DNA of 10,155 nucleotides from positions 1 to 10,155 of the forward strand of contig SAAR01000112.1 of NCBI GenBank assembly GCA_009916335.1, given 5' to 3'. Positions 335 through 10,155 of this stretch are shown here, in pieces. The stretch comes from Erysipelotrichia bacterium (GTDB lineage: Bacteria > Bacillota_I > Bacilli_A > Erysipelotrichales > Erysipelotrichaceae). The notes below the pieces were generated by a model. That model saw nothing but the letters and a program-made list of their open reading frames with translations. It had not been told where the DNA came from and made no database searches. Both the position numbers and the translations under genes were made by a program. Within the stretch, counting starts at the first letter, position 1; the number at the start of each line of letters is the position of its first letter.

Positions 335-1858
335 ATGGCACCAAATACAAAATTAGCAAAATCCCTTGAATCATTAAAAATCATTCAAGATACTATTGGT
401 ACCGTATTTGAGAGTTCAGATCTTCCTGCTAACGATCGAAGAATACTAAGTTCTCAAGGTTTTATAGAACCTATCATTAAAGGTTGGTATTTTATATCCA
501 ATCCAGAGAAAAATTTACAGCAAGGTAATACCACATTGTGGTATTCAAATTTTTGGCTTTTTATCTCTAAATATTTAAAAAATAGATTTGGCGAAGATTA
601 TATAATCAACCCAGATGATTCACTTTTGTTACATACAGGAAGCACTATTATTCCACAACAACTTATTGTTGCTAGCAAAGCGAACGGGAATATGAATTTA
701 ACGCTACCGACCAATATTAAAGTCATCATCTATTCAGATAAAAATATCCCTGAAAATGCAACCCTTATCAATGAGCTTAGGACATACCCATTGGAACATG
801 CTCTTTGCAAAATAAGTTCTGCATTTTACAAAAGTAATCCCACAGAAACTGAAATAGCATTTGGTTTAATTGGGGAGCCTTCTAAGTTACTCAGTGTTCT
901 CCTCTCAGATGAGCGGATGGAAGCGTCTGCAGGGAGGATTATCGGCGCACTTCGTTTTTTAAAGAGAGACCAAGATGCGAACAGAATAAAATCAACCTTA
1001 ATGGCATCACTTTTTACTATTCGAGAGACAAATCCCTTTGAAATAAGCACTCCAACAATACAGTCTTCTAGAGAAAAAAGTCCCTATACCATGCGCATTA
1101 GATCTATGTGGAAAAAATATAGAGAAGATGTATTGTTAGCTTTTAAAGATGTAAGCTCTTTTTCTATCACCAAAGATAAATACTTAGCAAATATGCAAGA
1201 AATATATACTTCCGATGCTTACCATTCATTATCTATTGAAGGTTATAAAGTCACAAATGATCTCATCAATAGAGTTGCAAACCATGATTGGAATCCAGAA
1301 AAAACTGAAGAAGATATGCACAGTAGAAATGCCCTCGCTGCCAGAGGATATTACCAAGCATTTGAGGCCGTGAAAAAAACTGTTGAGAAAATTTTTGATA
1401 GCACTAACCCTGTCGATATACTAAAAAATGATTTTCACGAATGGTACACACAACTGTTTGCACCGAGTGTTACAGCAGGTATTATAAAACCCTATGCACT
1501 TGCTGGATACAGAAATCATCAGGTTATTATTCAAAATTCTGCACATTCCCCTTTGCCACATTATGCGATTAGTGATGCCATAGATGTTTTTTTCGAACTA
1601 ATGAGTGAAGAAACAAATGCTTGTGTTAAAGCTGTTTTAGGACATTTTATCTTTGCCTTCATTCATCCTTATCCTGATGGCAATGGTCGTATATCAAGAT
1701 TTATCATGAATACAATGCTGGCCTCTGGGCAACATCCCTGGACAGTTATTAAAGTCGAAGATCGAGATGAATATATGAAATCTTTGGAAAGAGCAAGTGT
1801 TCATGGGGATATTAAGCCATTTGCATTATTTATTGTACAAAGAGTTAACAATATATAA
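335..1858 (+). CDS. Fic family protein with AbiEi-like N-terminal winged-helix region
   Basis: This 507-residue protein has two parts. Residues about 1-250 look like an AbiEi-type antitoxin: a winged helix with LSSQGFIEPIIKGWYF at 38-53, then a region with LLHTGSTIIPQQ and a helical tail. Residues about 255-507 are a Fic domain with the complete active motif H444-P-Y-P-D448-G-N-G451-R452-x-x-R455. H444 is the expected catalytic base and D448 the Mg ligand. The motif S298-L-S-I-E302-G303 fits the class II Fic inhibitory helix ([S/T]xxxE[G/N]), in which Glu blocks the ATP gamma-phosphate site, so the protein should be self-inhibited. Fic enzymes usually transfer AMP to a hydroxyl of a target protein; the target here is unknown. 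The start is fixed by AAGAGG six bases upstream. The DNA-binding region and the promoter repeats suggest autoregulation. It is convergent with the partition-type pair. Confidence 0.85.
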   Translation: MAPNTKLAKSLESLKIIQDTIGTVFESSDLPANDRRILSSQGFIEPIIKGWYFISNPEKNLQQGNTTLWYSNFWLFISKYLKNRFGEDYIINPDDSLLLHTGSTIIPQQLIVASKANGNMNLTLPTNIKVIIYSDKNIPENATLINELRTYPLEHALCKISSAFYKSNPTETEIAFGLIGEPSKLLSVLLSDERMEASAGRIIGALRFLKRDQDANRIKSTLMASLFTIRETNPFEISTPTIQSSREKSPYTMRIRSMWKKYREDVLLAFKDVSSFSITKDKYLANMQEIYTSDAYHSLSIEGYKVTNDLINRVANHDWNPEKTEEDMHSRNALAARGYYQAFEAVKKTVEKIFDSTNPVDILKNDFHEWYTQLFAPSVTAGIIKPYALAGYRNHQVIIQNSAHSPLPHYAISDAIDVFFELMSEETNACVKAVLGHFIFAFIHPYPDGNGRISRFIMNTMLASGQHPWTVIKVEDRDEYMKSLERASVHGDIKPFALFIVQRVNNI

Positions 1859-1867
1859 AATATAATT

Positions 1868-1894
1868 AAAATAGTGTTATTAAACAGCTATTTT
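1868..1894. terminator. AT-rich hairpin terminator between convergent genes
   Basis: AAAATAG-TGTT, loop ATTA, then AACA-(G)-CTATTTT forms an 11-bp stem with one bulged G at 1887. On the plus strand it runs into TTTTTCTATTTT; on the minus strand it is followed by TTTTAATTATATTTT. It lies 9 bases after the Fic stop and overlaps the stop codon of the ribbon-helix-helix gene. It could therefore end both transcripts. The stem is AT-rich, so strength is uncertain. Confidence 0.5.
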
Positions 1895-2145
1895 TCTATT
1901 TTAGCCATTCGAAGTGTTGCCATTTTTATAAACTTTCCAATAGTCATCCCATAACTACTTGCAGTGGACTCAACTAAAGCTAATTCACTTGGACTAAAAT
2001 AGACGGCATATCGATTTTCTTTTGCGTGCTCTTCTTGAGGCTTTCTGGGACGTCCGCCTTTTTTACGCTCACTTTCTGCAAAAGTTGATATCACTGATGA
2101 CTTTGCTTTATTTAACATTGAATCAATTGGTTTTTTCTCTGCCAT
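1888..2145 (-). CDS. Ribbon-helix-helix DNA-binding protein, partition-type (ParG/CopG-like)
   Basis: This 85-residue protein has a basic, flexible N-terminal half (KKGGRPRKP at 28-36) followed by a ribbon-helix-helix pattern. Strand NRYAVYFS spans 44-51, helix A about 52-65, the turn is at YGMT, and helix B about 68-81. Small RHH proteins of this shape next to a small ParA act as centromere-binding and autorepressor partners (ParG-like), with the N-terminal tail stimulating the ATPase. It starts 2 bases after the parA-like stop, with AGGTGA as ribosome site inside the end of that gene, so the two are translationally coupled. The 36-bp palindrome upstream of the parA-like gene is its most likely DNA site. 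A role in regulating the island rather than segregation cannot be excluded. Confidence 0.75.
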   Translation of the reverse strand: MAEKKPIDSMLNKAKSSVISTFAESERKKGGRPRKPQEEHAKENRYAVYFSPSELALVESTASSYGMTIGKFIKMATLRMAKIEK

Positions 2146-2147
2146 GA

Positions 2148-2711
2148 CTATTCACCTGCCTTAAAAAGATCAAGAATGGTTTTATATTGCTGATAAACAG
2201 TTTTATAGGCACATTTTGAAAGTGGTGTTTCATTATAGAGTTCTGTTAGACTCAAACCAGTTTCAATAGAGTTTTTAAAAGCTTTGGATAATCGAAGTTC
2301 AAAAAATTGTAAATTGTCAAAATGTTGTGATAGTGCATTTTTTACTGTTTCAAAATCGCCTTCTTTTTCTGTCTTTGTCACAACAATCAAAAGATTTTCA
2401 TTTAATGGTTGGATTTCTTCAATAGTTTCAACCGTACGCAAAATAGAATTATAATCATTGGAAACGGGTATTAAAATTGCATCACTTGCTTTTAACACTG
2501 GTAAAACACCAGCTGAAACAAATCCACCAAAGTCATAGATGCAATTATCAATAATCTCAGGATTTAATGAGATCTTTGCCATATCTGGATAAATAGATTC
2601 TATCACTGAGTTATCATTTGATTGCAAATAATAACCTAGGTCTTTTGCAAGGGAAAATGAGATAGGCGTTTTACCTACACCACCTTTTTTGTTGATGACA
2701 GAAATAATCAT
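2148..2711 (-). CDS. Small ParA-family ATPase (deviant Walker A)
   Basis: This 187-residue protein opens with MIISVINKKGGVGKT, the deviant Walker A of ParA/MinD ATPases (K9-GGVGKT15, with signature lysine K9 and catalytic-loop K14). Walker B-like IYDFGG ends at 63 (D60), and the later DAILIPVSNDYNSI stretch matches the usual ParA strand-loop. It lacks an N-terminal DNA-binding domain, and its length fits the type Ib plasmid ParA group (about 190-215 residues). ParA proteins bind nucleoid DNA non-specifically when ATP-bound and move a partition complex. P16 follows the Walker A threonine where Thr or Ser is more usual. It is the first gene of a two-gene operon with the RHH protein. AAAGG lies 6 bases before the ATG, inside the palindrome. 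No replication initiator is in the window, so plasmid versus integrated element is open. Confidence 0.85.
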   Translation of the reverse strand: MIISVINKKGGVGKTPISFSLAKDLGYYLQSNDNSVIESIYPDMAKISLNPEIIDNCIYDFGGFVSAGVLPVLKASDAILIPVSNDYNSILRTVETIEEIQPLNENLLIVVTKTEKEGDFETVKNALSQHFDNLQFFELRLSKAFKNSIETGLSLTELYNETPLSKCAYKTVYQQYKTILDLFKAGE

Positions 2712-2747
2712 ATATAACCTTTAAATAACGTTATTTAAAGGTTATAT
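2712..2747. promoter_or_regulatory. Perfect 36-bp palindrome: operator or centromere of the par pair
   Basis: The left half ATATAACCTTTAAATAAC is followed by its exact reverse complement, with no spacer and no mismatch. The palindrome begins at the last two bases of the -10 box, contains the expected transcription start, and ends at the base before the ATG, covering the ribosome site. An RHH dimer-of-dimers bound here would shut the promoter. If transcription starts upstream of the palindrome, the RNA could fold and hide AAAGG. Confidence 0.75.
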
Positions 2748-2774
2748 TATAGTTAAATATATACTTTTTATCAA
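2746..2774 (-). promoter_or_regulatory. Sigma-70-type promoter of the parA-RHH operon
   Basis: On the minus strand, TTGATA (2774-2769) is separated by exactly 17 bases from a perfect TATAAT (2751-2746). The predicted start, near 2739, is inside the 36-bp palindrome, giving a leader of about 28 bases. It is the best-matched promoter in the window. A 15-bp inverted repeat, AATTTTG-C-CAAAATT, at 2780-2794 sits just upstream of the -35 and could be a second control site or an AT-rich UP-like element. Confidence 0.75.
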
Positions 2775-2854
2775 GCATTAATTTTGCCAAAATTTTACAA
2801 TTCTTATGTGAAATTATAAAATTATATTCTAAAATCAAAATACCATTTAAACTA

Positions 2855-5800
2855 TTAATTAATTTTTCCAGCCAATAATTCCAAATACATCTCCACCAAT
2901 GATTCATCCTTGAGTGCATTGGCAGCTATTTCTAACACTTCCCAGCCAAGTAACTTAGCTTTTGTGCGTTTGATTTTGTCTTTTTCTGCTTGAGCAGGAT
3001 TGCCATGGTAGCGTGTTGAAAGTCCATCGATGTATATCAAAACTTTTTTGTCAATGTATGCAAAATCAGCAATCGTTGTTTCGTTTCCTCGTAATTCAAT
3101 TTCATATTGTTGGGTAGGCTCAGGGAAATTATTTTTATGCAAAATATCTAAAAAAGCCTCTTCTGCTGGGCTGTCTGTTTTATTTTCAGATTTTTTAGGA
3201 ACGGCATTGTTTGGTATTGTCATTTTTTCTGTCGGGGCTTTTTTGTAGTTCTCCAAAAGATTGATAGCTTCAATGCGATTTAGAACATTGTGATACTGCT
3301 GATTACTGTAATTCAAAAGACACTTGTAGCACACATCCTCACAATCACAAGCGTTCAATTTGGCTATGGCTTTTTCAACGATGAGAGGTAAGTTATCTAA
3401 AAAGAGTGAGAGATATCCACTCCCCCCTGGCAAGGAATCGTAAAAGACCACATTGAATTGTCCATTGTCTTTTGATTCAACGACGCCATCGATATCAAAT
3501 TCTCTTACGTCCAATATCTCAATGGCACCCAGTTTTAGTGACTCTAAAAAATTAGCAGCAATACTTGCAGAGGCAAAGCCCTCAAAGATAATCAAATCAG
3601 ATTCTAAATCAGTGTGCAAAGCATTCCAAAAAAACTTCGTATCCCTAATAAAACAACGCCTTTTATGCTCTTCCATAAAGTTAACTATTTCTGCTTCACT
3701 GGCTTTTGGATGTCTTACCGACCCGCAGGATGGGCAAATTAAAAATCCCAACTCTTTTTGACCATACATCCCTAGGTTTATTAGTCTAACATTGCCATTT
3801 TTTAGGTATTTTATTTTTGTTTTACCAATTTCATAGAGTGTTCCACCAAAATGTTTATCTAAAATGAGTGAACCTGTTTTAAAACCAATTCTCACCCGTG
3901 ACTCTTTGAGGTCATCTATCTTTTGAACTTTGTTTAATACGATATCTACCATAGGGAATGAAAAAAAGTTTTGGTACTCTTTATCGCCACCGTCATAATC
4001 TCTGGTAAAGTTTTCCAAAATAGCGCCACTGCTTGTTTCTAAAATCATATCTTTGCGGATATCTTCACTGCTAAAATTGACCTCTTTTTCTTTGATTTTT
4101 GCAAAATTAAGTCGAGTGATTTCAAAAATATTTTTATTAGCGTAAACTTTATTAGCTGGTGTTAGCTCTCTGATAGCAATAGTGTTGGCTCTGGATATTT
4201 CAAATAGAGGTTCTACACACACTGCTCTAACACTCTCTCTGCCTAAGGCATAGCTTGGGAAAAAACCATCTTTGGCAAGGTAGCTAAGGGTATAGTTGTC
4301 TTGTTTGTCAGAAAGATAGCTGTTAAGCGCTCTATTGTACGCATTAAATTCTCTTTCTTCGGCTTTATTCATAACTTCTTTTTGGCGATAAGGTGCAAGA
4401 ACACTGCGATATGTTTTTATTTCCAGCATCAGTTCATCAAGATGCTTTTTTAAATCACTTGACACTTCTTTTGTGGCACTCTTTAAAAACTCTTCATTGA
4501 TGCTTTCTTTGTCTTCAAGTGTCCAGTGGTCGAAAAATATTTTTTTGATATCGCTGTAAATGGAATCAAAATTATTTTCTATGACTGTTGCTAGTGCTTT
4601 AAAGTCATCAATTTTGTCTTTAAATCCTGCATTTCCTATCTCATCGTTGTAGGAGATATAGCGGGATATATATGTTGGAAAAACTTCTTTTAAAAGCTCT
4701 TGGTCTTTTACATTGCTTCGAAGCCATGTAAGTATGGCAGAGTGCACATGTTTTCGCACTAAATTTTGGTTTGACATACTAAAGGTTGGTATGCGGATAT
4801 TGCCTGTTATCATCTCAGCAGGATTTTCAAAGAAATAGCTGTCGTGTGATGCGTTTTTACAGTAGGTAAATACCGTTGCAATGCGATGTTTACGACCTGC
4901 TCGTCCGACTCTTTGTGTATAGTTTGGTGTTGAAGGTGGCACATTTTTGAGTAATACCATTTCAAGTTTACCGATATCAACACCCATCTCTAGTGTTGGT
5001 GTTGCGACCAGCGCATTACATGTACCATTGATTTTTTTAAACTCTTTTTCTATCTCTTCGCGCTTCTCTTTTCCAACTTGAGCCGAGTGCTCTTCTGGCT
5101 TAATTGGAGAGTATTTAAGGCTTGTGTATTGAAATACATCATAATTCTCTTGATCAAGCGGTTTGTAAATGACTTTACCTTTGCAATTGTAGGTAGGACA
5201 CGCTAGCGTAGGTAAGGCATGCGTATAGAATTTTTTACATACTTGGCACTGATAACATCCTTTGGCGTGTTTAAAGCCTATTTTGTCTTTGTTGAGTTGA
5301 TAAATTTTTTGAGCACTAAAGAGTGACTTGGTTTCTCCGTTATAATCTTTCTTAACTAAGTCAACATTGACCAGTAAATTAGTGTCAATCGCAAAATCCC
5401 ACAATTTATCTAAAAATGTGTTAATGTGTTGGGTATGTATAACGGCTTTTTTGGTCATCTCTTGAGCAGAACTTCGCCCATTTTTCGATTTCATAGCATG
5501 AATATAATTAGGTGCTTTTTCATCACTATTGCATGCAAGAAAAACAGCGTGAGGGAATGTGTCTTTCATAAGCGGTATGATGCCATCTCGGACTTCTAAG
5601 TCTTTTACATTCCATTTGCGTTTTGCCAGTTCATCGCTGACCGCTCCGCGTTTTCTTATAAAGTCTAAGATGTTGTGGATAATGGTTTTAAGCTCATCCA
5701 TGGAATTAAGCCCAAGCAAATCAACATACTCTTCAAATTCACTCAATGTACTGTTTGAAATCCCATCGTATAAAACACTCACCATGCCTAATTGTTCTAA

Positions 5801-8032
5801 GCTTATACGCTGTCTGGATGAATAAAACTCATCGATTAAAAACCAGCGGATGCGTTTACTCAGTTCATCTTGTTTAAACCCGCCTCCTGGGTAAATCCTT
5901 CGAGCTTCGGACTCCATAGACAAACGAGAGACAAAGCCATCATAACTGAGTGCTTCATCGTACGGACTCTCAAAACTTTCTATGATTTTATGCGCAACAA
6001 ATCTTAGATAAAAGCGTTTAGAGCGTTCACTCATCCAACTGGCGGTAAACGCAGCATCTTGTCTGCCATCGGCAAATATGAGTATCTTTTTGAGCTCTTC
6101 TTCATTCATGGAGCTAAGCATCGTTTGCGCCAATATCATCACATCCAGCACTTCCGTTGTTCGAATCTGCATTATCGGCAAATAATCACCTTTACTGGTC
6201 ATGCCACATGCTTGACATTTTTCAGCCCCTGCTTCGCCTACTTCAATGGCATGTACCTCGATAAGAGTATCGGTATTTCTACATTTAGAGTTTTGGCATC
6301 CTTGGGTATTTTTCTTATGCAATGCACCACAATGTTTACACAGATACATCAACTCCATTTTATTGCCATCATACTCTTCGTTGTAAAGCTTATGGGTAAA
6401 AAGCCAAGCACTCTGAGCCATGGGGTCTATCTTTTGATAATCCCTGCGCGATTCGTTAAAGGCATACACACCCACGCCGTTTTCACTTACAGGGTCTCTA
6501 TCAAATAGTCCCTCATGGTAATGCTGACCGCATGTACGGCAAATCTTTACATCAAATTTCAAACTTTTTGTATCACTTTTTTTGGTAAAGTGAAGGGTTG
6601 GACTTTGCGCATCTTCATAGCTAAGCGTGGCTTCATTAAGCCCTTTGACAAAATAGTGAAGCTTAGGACGAATGACTGGCTCATTATCAAAGCGTACAAT
6701 GGCACCAAGGGTGAGATAAGAGAGTAACTCGGCTTCAAGTACTTTTTCACTAGCACTTTTGCGGTCGCCAATCGTTCGGATACGCTTAAATCCTTCACTT
6801 GGAATCTTGGGTGTTGAAAATTCATTTTCGATTTGGCGTATGTATTCGCTGTGTGCCAATATATAGCCACACTTATCGATATTTTTACCCATTGACGGAG
6901 GCTCTATACCTGTTAATTCTACTGCTAGACCCAGTAAAGTATCGCTGATTTCATCGACTTCTTCTTGGAGATGAAACGCTCTTGCTTCTTGCAATATCTC
7001 CTCAGCCAAATCAAGGGCTCGTGAGGGCAATTTAGAGGTGATAAATGCATCGATTTCGCGCTCTTTATACTCTTCTTCCACCACTTCAATACTTGCATCA
7101 GTGACACCAAAAAGTTTACTTGCAAACGTGCGGATTACTTTGCTGCTGTCTTTATTGGCAACGGTGGCTGAAGTGCCGATGCACTGAACGGTTGTAGGGA
7201 AAAGAGACTTTATGCGACGATTGAGACACGCGACTTCGCTTCCTAGAGCGCCGGTGTAAGTATGGACTTCATCGTAAACCATAAATTGTAACGTGGGTGT
7301 TTTAAACAATTCCAAGTCTTTATCGCGCAATAAAAGATACTCAAGTTGAGAATAGTTGGTTAAAAGAATTTGAGGTTTATTTTTTAAAATCTCTTCACGC
7401 GTAAAGCTCTCTTCAAACGGCAGAGGAATCTCTCCTGTTTTATTGAATGTATCCATCTCTTCTTGGGAATACTTACGGCTAATTTCAAGCTTTTGGCGGC
7501 TTGATGTGTTTTGATTGGTCTCACCTGTGTATCTTCCAAACGTCACACCCGTTCCTGCTAGCATAAAACGAAGTCGCTCTAACTGGTCATTGACCAGGGC
7601 ATTCATAGGATAAACGATGATAGCCACCATACCATTTTGAGCACGATGCTTTAAACAATAATCAACGATAGGCAACAAAAAGCTCTCCGTTTTACCACTA
7701 CCTGTACCCGTGGAAACGATAAGGTTTTTACCTGCATTGACCGCACGCAATGCCTTTTCTTGGTGTCTGTGTATGGCTTCAAAAGGGAAAACATCTTTGA
7801 GCACGGGGTGTAAGGCAAGCTCACTCTCCAAGTCTCGCATCTTGGCACCTTCAACAAAGGGCTTATTGAGGTAGATAAACGGACCTTTTGAAATGAGATT
7901 GGCATCGCCAGTTTGGAGTTTTTCATCAAACTGTTTTTTGATTCCTTCATCGACTAATGGAAAGTTTCCTTTGAGGTAGCGTCCGTATTGAGTGATGACA
8001 TCTTTGCCAAATTGTACTGGATTTAAGCCCAT
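2855..8032 (-). CDS. Giant DEAD/DEAH helicase with DUF1998/MZB-type Cys cluster and C-terminal Vsr/DUF559-like nuclease domain
   Basis: This 1725-residue protein is a complete superfamily 2 helicase: Walker A STGTGSGKT at 107-115, DEVH at 254-257, SAT at 288-290, then ATPTLEMGVDIG and motif VI QRVGRAGR at 1040-1047. Between the motor lobes are Cys pairs fit for zinc: C498/C501, C565/C568 with two more near 580-585, a CxxC near 605, C929/C932 and a pair near 945. C1562-x-C-x3-C1568-x2-C1571 matches the DUF1998/MZB (MrfA/YprA) cluster. Residues about 1628-1720 look like an EDxHD (Vsr/DUF559) nuclease: D1656, IYIDG with D1669, H1676, then D..KR...L.GWEVLEI. Related DUF1998 helicases occur in anti-phage systems (DISARM DrmA, Druantia DruE) and in repair (MrfA). 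DNA translocation coupled to cleavage is the likely activity; substrate unknown. AAAGGG precedes the ATG. It follows the Fic gene by 11 bases. Confidence 0.85.
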   Translation of the reverse strand: MGLNPVQFGKDVITQYGRYLKGNFPLVDEGIKKQFDEKLQTGDANLISKGPFIYLNKPFVEGAKMRDLESELALHPVLKDVFPFEAIHRHQEKALRAVNAGKNLIVSTGTGSGKTESFLLPIVDYCLKHRAQNGMVAIIVYPMNALVNDQLERLRFMLAGTGVTFGRYTGETNQNTSSRQKLEISRKYSQEEMDTFNKTGEIPLPFEESFTREEILKNKPQILLTNYSQLEYLLLRDKDLELFKTPTLQFMVYDEVHTYTGALGSEVACLNRRIKSLFPTTVQCIGTSATVANKDSSKVIRTFASKLFGVTDASIEVVEEEYKEREIDAFITSKLPSRALDLAEEILQEARAFHLQEEVDEISDTLLGLAVELTGIEPPSMGKNIDKCGYILAHSEYIRQIENEFSTPKIPSEGFKRIRTIGDRKSASEKVLEAELLSYLTLGAIVRFDNEPVIRPKLHYFVKGLNEATLSYEDAQSPTLHFTKKSDTKSLKFDVKICRTCGQHYHEGLFDRDPVSENGVGVYAFNESRRDYQKIDPMAQSAWLFTHKLYNEEYDGNKMELMYLCKHCGALHKKNTQGCQNSKCRNTDTLIEVHAIEVGEAGAEKCQACGMTSKGDYLPIMQIRTTEVLDVMILAQTMLSSMNEEELKKILIFADGRQDAAFTASWMSERSKRFYLRFVAHKIIESFESPYDEALSYDGFVSRLSMESEARRIYPGGGFKQDELSKRIRWFLIDEFYSSRQRISLEQLGMVSVLYDGISNSTLSEFEEYVDLLGLNSMDELKTIIHNILDFIRKRGAVSDELAKRKWNVKDLEVRDGIIPLMKDTFPHAVFLACNSDEKAPNYIHAMKSKNGRSSAQEMTKKAVIHTQHINTFLDKLWDFAIDTNLLVNVDLVKKDYNGETKSLFSAQKIYQLNKDKIGFKHAKGCYQCQVCKKFYTHALPTLACPTYNCKGKVIYKPLDQENYDVFQYTSLKYSPIKPEEHSAQVGKEKREEIEKEFKKINGTCNALVATPTLEMGVDIGKLEMVLLKNVPPSTPNYTQRVGRAGRKHRIATVFTYCKNASHDSYFFENPAEMITGNIRIPTFSMSNQNLVRKHVHSAILTWLRSNVKDQELLKEVFPTYISRYISYNDEIGNAGFKDKIDDFKALATVIENNFDSIYSDIKKIFFDHWTLEDKESINEEFLKSATKEVSSDLKKHLDELMLEIKTYRSVLAPYRQKEVMNKAEEREFNAYNRALNSYLSDKQDNYTLSYLAKDGFFPSYALGRESVRAVCVEPLFEISRANTIAIRELTPANKVYANKNIFEITRLNFAKIKEKEVNFSSEDIRKDMILETSSGAILENFTRDYDGGDKEYQNFFSFPMVDIVLNKVQKIDDLKESRVRIGFKTGSLILDKHFGGTLYEIGKTKIKYLKNGNVRLINLGMYGQKELGFLICPSCGSVRHPKASEAEIVNFMEEHKRRCFIRDTKFFWNALHTDLESDLIIFEGFASASIAANFLESLKLGAIEILDVREFDIDGVVESKDNGQFNVVFYDSLPGGSGYLSLFLDNLPLIVEKAIAKLNACDCEDVCYKCLLNYSNQQYHNVLNRIEAINLLENYKKAPTEKMTIPNNAVPKKSENKTDSPAEEAFLDILHKNNFPEPTQQYEIELRGNETTIADFAYIDKKVLIYIDGLSTRYHGNPAQAEKDKIKRTKAKLLGWEVLEIAANALKDESLVEMYLELLAGKIN

Positions 8033-8043
8033 GTGTGCCCTTT

Positions 8044-8622
8044 TTAGATTTCACTAAATATAAAATATTCAAGTGGCTTGTAATTTTTATTATCTGCTTC
8101 TTTTAGTGCTTCGATGTAGATAGTTCGAGCATTAGTCCCAAACGGTTGACCCCATACAGGAAGAGTATGCCCCATTTTTGTTAGCCATATTTCTGTTGCT
8201 AGTCGAGCCCACCTGCCATTTCCGTTTGGAAATGGATGAATATAGACTAGCTTATGATGCAGTCGTGTTGCCGTCTCTTTTATCTCCCACTGTTTTTCCC
8301 AATATTTAAGATCGTCGCACAACTGATAAAGAGAGGTTTGGATGTATGATGCATTTATGCCGATTGTAGTTTGAGTCGTTCGATATGTACCAGCCCAACT
8401 CCATACATCACCCAACATCACTTTATGAATCTCGCGCAAAAAAGGCTCGTCAAGTTGTTGCTTCTTGCGAGGTGAAAAATCAATCAAAAATTTCAAGTAT
8501 GCTTTTGCGATATTGATACTTTCGGCATCGTCTAGCTCTTTTTTTGTAGTAATAATTTTAAGCTTAAGTCCCGATATATCATCTAGCGGTGTTTCGCCGT
8601 ACTTATCAAAAGTTATTGCCAT
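8044..8622 (-). CDS. Fic protein, mobile mystery protein B type
   Basis: This 192-residue protein has the known layout of 'mobile mystery protein B': TPLDD near the start, TTKKELDDAE, then MLGDVWSWAGTYRTTQTTIGI at about 69-89, LxxLCDDLKYW at about 98-108, and the Fic motif H129-P-F-P-N133-G-N-G136-R137-x-x-R140 followed by a W-G element. The family belongs to the Fic/Doc superfamily and is often found with an HTH regulator on mobile DNA; its substrate is not known. N133 replaces the Asp/Glu that normally binds Mg in AMP-transferring Fic enzymes, so activity may differ from AMP transfer or be lost. No inhibitory [S/T]xxxE[G/N] helix is visible. Its ATG overlaps the last 10 bases of the HTH gene, a classic toxin-antitoxin-like arrangement. 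The helicase follows after 11 bases. Confidence 0.85.
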   Translation of the reverse strand: MAITFDKYGETPLDDISGLKLKIITTKKELDDAESINIAKAYLKFLIDFSPRKKQQLDEPFLREIHKVMLGDVWSWAGTYRTTQTTIGINASYIQTSLYQLCDDLKYWEKQWEIKETATRLHHKLVYIHPFPNGNGRWARLATEIWLTKMGHTLPVWGQPFGTNARTIYIEALKEADNKNYKPLEYFIFSEI

Positions 8623-8987
8623 ATTTTTGACCTAGGGAGTTTAGCCAATTGTGATTTGATTTGTTTGCGCAGGAGTGCTTGAGTTTTGCTTGATGGTTCT
8701 TGAAGCTCAAGCGCACTGGTATGAATCACTCTTGAGAGAATCATTTCAGTTTTATATTCGATTTGGGATGCAATCATTTTTGATGTGCTCATCTTTGGGC
8801 GCAAATTATCATCAAGTCCCAATGCCTCCATGATAGATTCAATTTTACCCACAGAGACATCACGAGCATCATATACACGCTTAACGGTTGCCACTCCAAC
8901 TCTAGCACGCTTAGCAATACCCTCGTAGGAGATTGCCAATTGCGTTTTACGAAGATTAAGTTTTTGGACGATTTTATCGCGCAACAT
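8613..8987 (-). CDS. HTH regulator paired with the Fic protein (probable antitoxin/repressor)
   Basis: This 124-residue protein has a helix-turn-helix at about 17-55 (EGIAKRARVGVATVKRVYDA, then the VGKIESIMEALGL helix), resembling Xre/LacI-type HTHs. Its C-terminal helical region holds TSALELQEPS and ends RSKIW, which resembles regulators found beside mobile mystery B Fic proteins. It probably represses its own promoter and may neutralise the downstream Fic protein, by analogy with other HTH-Fic pairs. AAGGAG lies 5 bases before the ATG, a strong ribosome site. The gene overlaps the Fic gene by 10 bases. The inverted repeat GTATCA-N4-TGATAC just upstream is its likely operator. The assignment to the classical mobile mystery A family is uncertain because the HTH is N-terminal here. 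Confidence 0.7.
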   Translation of the reverse strand: MLRDKIVQKLNLRKTQLAISYEGIAKRARVGVATVKRVYDARDVSVGKIESIMEALGLDDNLRPKMSTSKMIASQIEYKTEMILSRVIHTSALELQEPSSKTQALLRKQIKSQLAKLPRSKIWQ

Positions 8988-8999
8988 ATTGTCTCCTTG

Positions 9000-9015
9000 G
9001 TATCAGATTTGATAC
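9000..9015. promoter_or_regulatory. Inverted repeat GTATCA-N4-TGATAC, likely HTH operator
   Basis: A perfect 6-bp inverted repeat with a 4-base spacer lies between the -10 box (9025-9020) and the ribosome site of the HTH gene, over the expected transcription start. The half-site TTTGATAC (9008-9015) recurs at 9060-9067, on the far side of the -35. The position fits autorepression by the HTH protein. Confidence 0.6.
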
Positions 9016-9019
9016 TTTT

Positions 9020-9049
9020 ATTATAGCAAAAATCGCTGCATCAAAACAA
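9020..9049 (-). promoter_or_regulatory. Extended -10 promoter of the HTH-Fic cassette
   Basis: On the minus strand, TGCTATAAT gives an extended -10 with a perfect TATAAT at 9025-9020. TTGTTT at 9049-9044 is a fair -35 with an 18-base spacer. The cassette therefore has its own promoter and can also drive the helicase 11 bases beyond the Fic stop. Confidence 0.65.
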
Positions 9050-9155
9050 CTAGTTGCTTTTTGATACCTTCATCGACTAAAGGAGTGTTTCCCTTGAGAT
9101 AACGCCCGTATTGCGTGATGACATCTTTGCCAAATTGTACTGGATTTAAGCCCAT
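9021..9155 (-). pseudogene. Truncated second copy of the helicase 5' end
   Basis: The bases at 9061-9166 match 7938-8043 without gaps, with 10 mismatches in 106 bases, including the AAAGGG ribosome site and the start codon. A 43-base block around the start is identical (9115-9157 versus 7992-8034). Translation from the ATG at 9155 gives MGLNPVQFGKDVITQYGRYL and onward, the same as residues 1-34 of the complete helicase except F24 to T. After Q34 the frame turns into LVVLMQRFLL and stops (TAA at 9023-9021). It sits 49 bases after the membrane-protein stop, the spot where the helicase would begin if the HTH-Fic cassette were absent. It may still be translated as a 44-residue peptide but is best read as a gene remnant. 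Confidence 0.85.
9040..9065. repeat. Imperfect 26-bp palindrome at the cassette junction
   Basis: ATCAAAA-CAACTAGTTG-CT-TTTTGAT is centred on CTAG and has a two-base asymmetry. It lies exactly where similarity to the helicase gene ends and the cassette begins, and overlaps the -35 of the HTH promoter. It could be a regulator site or the scar of the recombination that placed the cassette. Confidence 0.45.
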
Positions 9156-9204
9156 GTATGCCCTTTATAAGGTTGTTTTATTTAATGTTTTATCTTTTAA
9201 GTTT

Positions 9205-9744
9205 TTATTTTTTTTCTTTTGGTGGTTCTGGCTTTTTAGTCTCGTTAGTATCTTGGTTAGATGAAACTATGCCATTAAAAGCTCTTTCTTTGTAAGAGCT
9301 TGATTTTGATTGTTCTTGCTTAGATTGATTTTCAGCCATAATGACTAACTCCTTTGGTTTTGATTGATATATTAAAGAGAGCGTAAATATTATACTCATA
9401 AGAATACCCATTGCAAAAGGTATATATTTTGTTTTATCCAAAATGCTTAGTTCTTTTATTTCTTCGCCTTTGCCACTTGTTTTTATAATCGACATCAACA
9501 ACTTCTTGTTATATATAAAAATTAAAAGTATTAGTAAAATAGTTATTGCAAACATGACAATGGCGATGATAGAAGTAATAAACATAACTTCAGATATTTC
9601 CTTATCACTTTGAAAAATAGCAATGTAAAATCCAAGTGCTGCAGTTGAAAGACCTAAAACCGTTTTATCATGCTCTAATTCATTTTGAAAAAATGCTTGA
9701 AGTGAAGCTTTATAAAGCTCTTCCTCTTTTTTTGATGGCTCCAT
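9205..9744 (-). CDS. Three-helix membrane protein of unknown function
   Basis: The ATG at 9744 gives 179 residues and is preceded by AAGGA five bases upstream. A TTG at 9762 extends the frame by six codons but overlaps the previous gene and has no ribosome site. The protein starts with a charged amphipathic helix (about 5-28), followed by hydrophobic segments at about 28-45, 53-78 and 107-127. A polar, low-complexity tail of about 50 residues rich in Ser, Gln, Lys and Pro follows, ending KPEPPKEKK. There is no signal peptide, and I do not recognise a family. It starts 8 bases after the previous stop, so it belongs to that operon, and was probably followed originally by the helicase. Small membrane proteins beside nucleic-acid sensors in defence loci often act as membrane effectors or anchors, but nothing here proves that role. 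Confidence 0.7.
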   Translation of the reverse strand: MEPSKKEEELYKASLQAFFQNELEHDKTVLGLSTAALGFYIAIFQSDKEISEVMFITSIIAIVMFAITILLILLIFIYNKKLLMSIIKTSGKGEEIKELSILDKTKYIPFAMGILMSIIFTLSLIYQSKPKELVIMAENQSKQEQSKSSSYKERAFNGIVSSNQDTNETKKPEPPKEKK

Positions 9745-10153: not shown

Positions 10154-10155
10154 TG

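What the first reader, a model, noticed from the sequence alone, without database searches (positions are those of the whole stretch)
8044..9166. HTH-Fic cassette bracketed by two copies of the helicase 5' end
The cassette lies between a truncated helicase start (9166 down to about 9057) and the complete start (8043 down). Both copies carry the same ribosome site and the first 34 codons. Deleting one repeat plus the cassette would leave a membrane-protein/helicase operon with the helicase start 49 bases after the membrane gene. This resembles elements that insert into a gene start and rebuild it with their own copy of the lost piece. The target stays intact and the cargo (a toxin-antitoxin-like pair) gains a place in a defence operon. 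No recombinase is present.
Basis: partly seen in the sequence, partly recalled or inferred. Interest (0 to 1): 0.75.

Follow-up and report, generated by a model that had tools for sequence, protein, structure and literature searches.

The report
Toxin-like gene pair between helicase starts
A small gene pair resembling a toxin and its regulator sits between a broken and a complete copy of the start of a defence-type helicase gene; the two starts look like two different versions of that gene brought together by recombination, an unusual but not unprecedented way for such genes to settle in.

Summary
A 115-nt direct repeat (90% identical) covers the leader and first 33 codons of a 1725-aa DruE-like helicase and brackets an HTH-Fic pair. 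The Fic passes the curated cut-off of NCBIfam 'mobile mystery protein B'; the HTH resembles partner 'A' only weakly. A Sulfurospirillaceae MAG (L001; helicase 95% aa) has the helicase with one start and no cassette, and the 37 nt before its start align with the leader of the truncated copy. That is an empty site for the cassette, but its upstream genes differ, so the proposed membrane/helicase operon is unsupported. The two starts do not look like a fresh duplicate: in 33 codons they differ by 8 synonymous sites and one amino-acid-changing codon, and each is about as far from L001 as from the other. Best reading: an HTH-Fic-helicase segment recombined into a locus holding another helicase allele, leaving 33 codons of the old one. 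Insertion with long target duplication, tandem alleles with a deletion, and integrase-type start rebuilding remain rivals. None of 23 other mobile-mystery loci in Campylobacteria showed a comparable flanking repeat. Moderately interesting.

The parts
2855..8032 (-). DruE-like helicase, 1725 aa (DEAD, Helicase_C, MZB), complete start at 8032
   Evidence: 95% aa identity to L001
7932..8046 (-). intact copy of the repeat: leader plus first codons of the helicase
   Evidence: alignment
8044..8622 (-). Fic protein, 192 aa, mobile mystery protein B; HPFPNGNGR motif intact; its stop lies 11 nt before the helicase ATG
   Evidence: TIGR02613 169.9 bits, cut-off 124.4; Fic PF02661; motif and spacing read in the sequence
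8613..8987 (-). HTH protein, 124 aa, probable partner and autoregulator (mobile mystery A-like)
   Evidence: TIGR02612 19.9 bits, far below cut-off 122.6; HTH_31 23.6 bits, below cut-off 27; 36-42% identical to HTHs directly upstream of the four closest Fics
9000..9015 (.). perfect palindrome GTATCA-N4-TGATAC, probable operator of the HTH; found, perfect or with one mismatch, twice before the HTH in each of the four closest cassettes
   Evidence: the only hit with at most one mismatch in the window, mean 0.3 in 20 plain shuffles
9055..9169 (-). truncated helicase start: leader and 33 codons, ending next to the cassette's promoter region
   Evidence: 89% identical to the start of the L001 helicase over 139 nt
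9156..9193 (-). leader of the truncated copy, aligned to the 37 nt before the L001 helicase ATG (exact 18-mer ATAAAACATTAAATAAAA); the intact copy matches L001 over 11 nt of leader only
9205..9744 (-). predicted membrane protein upstream of the truncated start
   Evidence: relatives in 4 of 397 class genomes, none with a helicase match

Best explanation
The arrangement is the scar of recombination between two alleles of the same helicase gene. One lineage carried HTH-Fic directly upstream of the helicase, with the Fic stop 11 nt before the helicase ATG so that the pair and the helicase can be transcribed together. DNA from that lineage entered a genome that already held another helicase allele. 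Homology inside the helicase anchored it, and the other end joined illegitimately at about codon 34 of the resident gene. The result is a 33-codon remnant of the resident gene with its native leader, then promoter-HTH-Fic, then a complete helicase. Shown: repeat, family of the Fic, one cassette-free relative, allele-like divergence. Inferred: donor and recipient, anchor, co-transcription, and that Fic and HTH form a toxin-antitoxin pair.
For: Truncated versus intact start: 8 synonymous and 2 nonsynonymous differences (one codon) in 99 nt; truncated versus L001 7+2; intact versus L001 8+0. Sites private to truncated, intact and L001 number 5, 4 and 3, interleaved, with one three-way site. 33-codon stretches of the whole helicase differ between window and L001 by a mean of 9.5 synonymous and 2.6 nonsynonymous sites, so the two starts in the window differ about as much as genes of two organisms. 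In a neutral simulation ten changes leave at most one changed residue with P 0.0001, five with P 0.02. The truncated copy carries the L001-type leader. Between window and L001, homology covers almost exactly the helicase gene (window 2839-8043), with no other blastn match in the flanks held. The helicase has a stretch where the window departs from two other alleles (27 of 39 informative residues; permutation p 0.017). P0121, 96% identical to the Fic, ends in the same tail SEI, as expected if the Fic/helicase junction is old.
Against: Only one cassette-free relative and no other occupied site with DNA were found. The numbers in 33 codons are small: for the five changes private to the truncated copy, counted by site and not by codon, the neutral model gives P 0.11, so an old duplication is not excluded. 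The mosaic test was made after a single change-point test had given p 0.14. The contig of P0121 (1186 nt) could not be read, so the shared tail is indirect. L001 is a MAG, which limits what its flanks prove.
Confidence: 0.5

Rival explanations
1. Insertion with long target duplication: the promoter-HTH-Fic unit entered the helicase start in this lineage and duplicated about 115 nt of it, as proposed for restriction-modification genes. The copies then diverged.
For: A 115-nt duplication flanks the unit; the pair resembles an addiction module; PMC4978471 discusses such an insertion in Helicobacter pylori (passages), which belongs to the same class (recalled). By site count the private changes of the truncated copy fit neutrality (P 0.11).
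Against: The copies should start identical. Here they are as far apart as either is from L001, and nine of ten changed codons-or-sites pattern is mostly synonymous: 8 synonymous sites, one changed residue.
Confidence: 0.2
2. Two helicase operons stood in tandem (one behind the membrane gene, one behind HTH-Fic), and a deletion removed the first helicase from codon 34 to just before the HTH.
For: Explains allele-level divergence and the native leader equally well; needs no special insertion.
Against: No locus with two full helicases was seen: the helicase was found in 1 of 397 class genomes, once in that genome (at most 2 candidates scored per genome).
Confidence: 0.15
3. A non-autonomous integrative unit moved by a trans-acting integrase inserts at the helicase 5' end and rebuilds it with its own start, as IMEs do at dusA and SXT at prfC.
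For: Layout: displaced native start on one side, rebuilt start on the other. A homologous HTH-Fic pair in L029 lies in a tmRNA island between repeats of the tmRNA end, with no integrase seen by eye in that bracket.
Against: No recombinase in the window; no long identical core at the inner edge; a rare accessory helicase is an odd integrase target (general knowledge).
Confidence: 0.1

Closest known systems
Mobile mystery protein A/B pair (TIGR02612/TIGR02613)
   Same: Fic over the curated cut-off, small HTH gene directly upstream, relatives in varied genomic places
   Different: HTH far below the A cut-off; bracketed by copies of a neighbour gene's start, for which none of 23 other loci shows a comparable repeat
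Insertion with long target duplication (Nobusato et al. 2000, seen only as a cited reference; passages of PMC3031569 and PMC4978471)
   Same: Addiction-type genes between long direct repeats of target sequence, without a recombinase
   Different: Copies 10% diverged at mostly synonymous sites, like two alleles
Homology-facilitated illegitimate recombination (abstract start of PMC3240628; passages of PMC5361080, where it is put forward for T6SS immunity gene arrays)
   Same: One homologous end, one illegitimate end, remnant of the resident gene left beside the newcomer
   Different: Donor and recipient are not known here
Integrative elements that rebuild a gene start: IMEVchUSA3 at dusA, SXT at prfC (passages of PMC8409611)
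   Same: New 5' end supplied by the incoming DNA; by layout the displaced native start stays on the far side
   Different: Those elements integrate by an integrase; here about 1 kb without one and no visible core

Membership tests
Mobile mystery protein B (TIGR02613) | score over the curated cut-off 124.4 bits | tested here: met
   169.9 bits
Mobile mystery protein A (TIGR02612) | score over the curated cut-off 122.6 bits | tested here: not met
   19.9 bits; only the place next to B fits
Insertion with long target duplication | long direct repeat of target sequence on both sides of the unit | tested here: met
   115 nt, 90%
Insertion with long target duplication | related genome with one copy and no insert | tested here: inconclusive
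   L001 has one start and no cassette, but its upstream genes differ
Insertion with long target duplication | copies closer to each other than to other alleles | tested here: not met
   10 differences between copies, 9 and 8 to L001, in 99 nt; one other allele only
5'-end-targeting integrative element | integrase gene in the element | tested here: not met
   none in 8 window proteins; action in trans not excluded
5'-end-targeting integrative element | identical core where the displaced start ends | tested here: not met
   identical runs there of 14 and 8 nt
Homology-facilitated illegitimate recombination | homology on one side, non-homologous joint on the other | tested here: met
   helicase alleles on one side, joint at about 9055 without clear homology; a shared 7-mer TTTGATG nearby may be chance. 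The DNA of the donor upstream of the HTH is not known
Homology-facilitated illegitimate recombination | known donor and recipient | not testable with these tools
   no second occupied locus with DNA was found
Druantia (DruE) | DruE with type-specific partner genes | tested here: inconclusive
   DruE1 406.7 bits, no other Dru protein among 8 window proteins; the window ends at 10155
Toxin-antitoxin system | toxicity relieved by the partner | not testable with these tools
   intact Fic motif and operator palindrome only

The most novel reading that the evidence does not exclude
HTH-Fic pairs of this kind travel as bare promoter-to-stop units that settle in the leader of other accessory genes: the last Fic codons are supplied by the target, and the target's start is kept by duplication or by a second allele. 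Fic, HTH and helicase then form one unit whose loss would be punished by the toxin.
Probability: 0.1. Interest if true: 0.65.

Novelty: new member of a known kind. Interest (0 to 1): 0.36.

Why it matters
It is a readable fossil of how a toxin-antitoxin-like pair gets in front of a defence-type helicase without a recombinase and without breaking it. If alleles with and without the pair circulate, the step can be dated and the claim that such pairs stabilise their neighbours can be tested on one locus.

Tried and rejected
Truncated start as a separate small gene: a search with its 44-aa reading found no candidate. The search needs shared 5-residue words and similar length, so full helicases were excluded by design and a rare small gene could be missed.

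Bracketing by duplicated starts as a general habit of mobile mystery pairs: of 23 Campylobacteria loci (up to 3 kb on each side, less in L036, L040 and L045, whose contigs are short; three best rows shown per locus), 5 had a flanking direct repeat with E below 1e-3: L029, L037, L047, L048, L050. The strongest, in L037, is 85 nt at 84%. I inspected four: L029 is repeats of a tmRNA 3' end, L037 a multi-copy intergenic repeat, L047 AT-rich, L048 a 36-nt intergenic repeat. L050 (52 nt, 77%) and the weaker matches were not inspected.

Led nowhere: helicase and Fic in viral contigs, window DNA in plasmids and cassette DNA in phages, membrane protein in plasmids (this query and that began two codons inside the gene), empty site for L048 (relatives too diverged), downstream acetyltransferase fragment of L032 (loci not analysed further), a single change-point test (p 0.14), promoter scan of 7900-9300 (4 found, 4.1 expected). 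Integron integrase: over the cut-off in 1 of 7 genomes searched (G368), below it in 2 more; its link to the L037 repeats was not tested. Assembly artefact was judged unlikely by reasoning only (the copies differ and the inner joint shares no long word).

Literature: 'mobile mystery protein' gave 4 papers, none opened; 'mobile mystery' with Fic and toxin gave none; Druantia with Fic gave 2, not opened; one search listed 5, not opened. In PMC3874152 I saw one reference only; passages of PMC2654758 were not used. Furuta 2010 is not held.

Full report
Observation. The window holds one outstanding direct repeat, 7932-8046 and 9055-9169, 115 nt at 90% identity; the next longest of the 20 families shown (of 47) are 32-44 nt at 70-72%. 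On the minus strand the copies are the leader and first codons of a 1725-aa helicase (ATG at 8032) and a truncated version (ATG at 9155). They share the AAAGGG ribosome site and 33 codons with one residue changed. Between them lie an HTH gene (8613-8987) and a Fic gene (8044-8622) that overlap by 10 nt.

Identities. The Fic is 'mobile mystery protein B' (TIGR02613, 169.9 bits, cut-off 124.4). The HTH matches 'mobile mystery protein A' only weakly (19.9 bits, cut-off 122.6). The helicase carries DEAD, Helicase_C and MZB domains; its best PADLOC match is DruE1 (406.7 bits). The Fic motif HPFPNGNGR is intact (read in the sequence; its name is recalled). No whole genome is held for the window.

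Cassette anatomy. The closest Fic loci with DNA are L028, L029, L032 and L048 (57-63% identity); each has an HTH gene of the same kind directly upstream. Before the HTH stands a palindrome GTATCA-N4-TGATAC: one copy in the window, two in each of the four relatives, with at most one mismatch. By eye a TATAAT lies at 9025-9020 with a poor -35 next to the end of the truncated helicase. The promoter scan did not list it and found no more sites than chance (4 against 4.1). Of 15 related Fic proteins fetched (of 120 listed, 740 found), 14 end in F[MI]F plus a short variable tail. The window's tail is SEI, and its stop lies 11 nt before the helicase ATG. The letters ATCTAA around that stop resemble the helicase leader of L001 (ATCTAAA), so the last codon may come from the helicase side; this is only suggestive.

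Empty site. L001, a Sulfurospirillaceae MAG, encodes the helicase at 95% aa identity with no cassette. The truncated copy aligns to its helicase start over 139 nt (89%), reaching 37 nt before the L001 ATG, with an exact 18-mer in the leader. The intact copy aligns with only 11 nt of leader. So the truncated copy keeps what looks like the native leader. Beyond that, blastn found no further match between the window and the L001 stretch held (21 kb). In L001 the upstream genes include a DrmMI-like methylase and a PD-Lambda-3 A-like protein. The genome of L001 has no Fic over the mobile-mystery cut-off (one weak match). The helicase was found in 1 of 397 class genomes (E to 1e-40, at most 2 candidates scored per genome) and 1 of 44 family genomes (E to 1e-60), both times that MAG. 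A relative of the membrane protein was found in 4 of 397, none with a helicase match. Of 227 plasmid records with a distant helicase match (20 listed) I read the annotation of 5: none lists a Fic or mobile-mystery gene, and 3 of the 5 have a DNA methylase gene upstream. The plasmid annotation is incomplete.

History of the two starts. In 33 codons, truncated versus intact differ by 8 synonymous and 2 nonsynonymous sites (one codon), truncated versus L001 by 7 and 2, intact versus L001 by 8 and 0. Private sites number 5, 4 and 3, with one site at which all differ. Three nearly equal branches mean that the two starts in this window are no closer to each other than to a gene in another organism. 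In a neutral simulation, ten changes leave at most one changed residue with P 0.0001, and at most two nonsynonymous sites with P 0.0005. For the five changes private to the truncated copy the two figures are 0.02 and 0.11. The second of these would not exclude a dead copy by itself; together with the equal branches I take a second helicase allele as the likelier source. The longest identical run is 43 nt at codons 1-14, not at the inner edge of the truncated copy, where the runs are 14 and 8 nt; this speaks against a recent site-specific exchange there.

Helicase mosaicism. Compared with P0001 and L001 at protein level, the window's helicase has a middle stretch in which it stands apart (27 of 39 informative residues; 41 of 86 in the whole protein; permutation p 0.017). 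A single change-point test made first gave p 0.14. This is a hint, not proof, of recombination inside the gene.

How it most likely arose. DNA with HTH-Fic-helicase entered a genome with another helicase allele, was anchored by homology inside the gene, and was joined illegitimately at about codon 34 of the resident gene. That process is described as homology-facilitated illegitimate recombination (abstract start of PMC3240628). It was put forward for immunity gene arrays with orphan remnants in Vibrio cholerae, in a paper that also calls it rare where measured (passages of PMC5361080). Insertion with long target duplication is the nearest rival (passages of PMC3031569 and PMC4978471; the founding paper seen only as a reference). 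Start-rebuilding integrative elements at dusA and prfC (passages of PMC8409611) share the layout but use an integrase.

How general. In 23 Campylobacteria loci over the family cut-off (23 of 397 genomes) a search for flanking direct repeats gave 5 loci with E below 1e-3, the strongest 85 nt at 84%; four were inspected and none is a copy of a neighbouring gene's start. One of them, L029, is informative: its HTH-Fic lies downstream of a tmRNA gene, between repeats of the tmRNA 3' end, with no integrase seen by eye among the ORFs between the repeats (no profile search was made there). Such pairs do seem to travel on mobile units, but by different routes.

What remains open. There is one cassette-free relative, no second occupied site with DNA, and no experiment. 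That Fic and HTH act as toxin and antitoxin, and that they are co-transcribed with the helicase, is inferred.

Noticed in passing
window 1888-2747: ParA-like gene (2148-2711; CbiA over its Pfam cut-off, ParA_partition below its own), an 85-aa gene next to it and a perfect 36-bp palindrome (2712-2747) right at the ParA start: looks like a partition module, so the window may be from a plasmid.
   Followed up: no
window 335-1858: A second Fic protein (507 aa; best PADLOC match SoFic, 81.8 bits) in the same window, close to the partition genes.
   Followed up: no
L029 (opposite orientation) about 2600-6673: Island at a tmRNA gene: 15-17 nt of the tmRNA 3' end recur at about 2958, 4122 and 6657; the last two bracket a membrane-like gene and an HTH-Fic pair, no integrase seen by eye between.
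   Followed up: partly
L068 9501-11104 compared with L029: Promoter and HTH (86%) and the downstream DNA (79%) match L029, but tblastn finds no Fic; about 1 kb with another ORF on the other strand (246 aa, DUF3800-like by eye) stands in its place.
   Followed up: partly
L068 7778-8386 and 9555-9950: A relative of the window's membrane protein and an orphan mobile-mystery-type HTH lie about 1.2 kb apart in another genome of the class.
   Followed up: no
L037 (opposite orientation) 5326-5464, 7294-7401, 8232-8315: 84-121 nt intergenic repeats around HTH-Fic and gene pairs that look like MNT/HEPN by eye; the genome (G368) has an integron integrase over the cut-off on another contig.
   Followed up: partly
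L032 6557-6739: A 61-aa piece that looks by eye like the C-terminal part of a GNAT acetyltransferase starts at the Fic stop codon; six other genomes of 80 have matches in longer frames, so this cassette may have cut that gene.
   Followed up: partly
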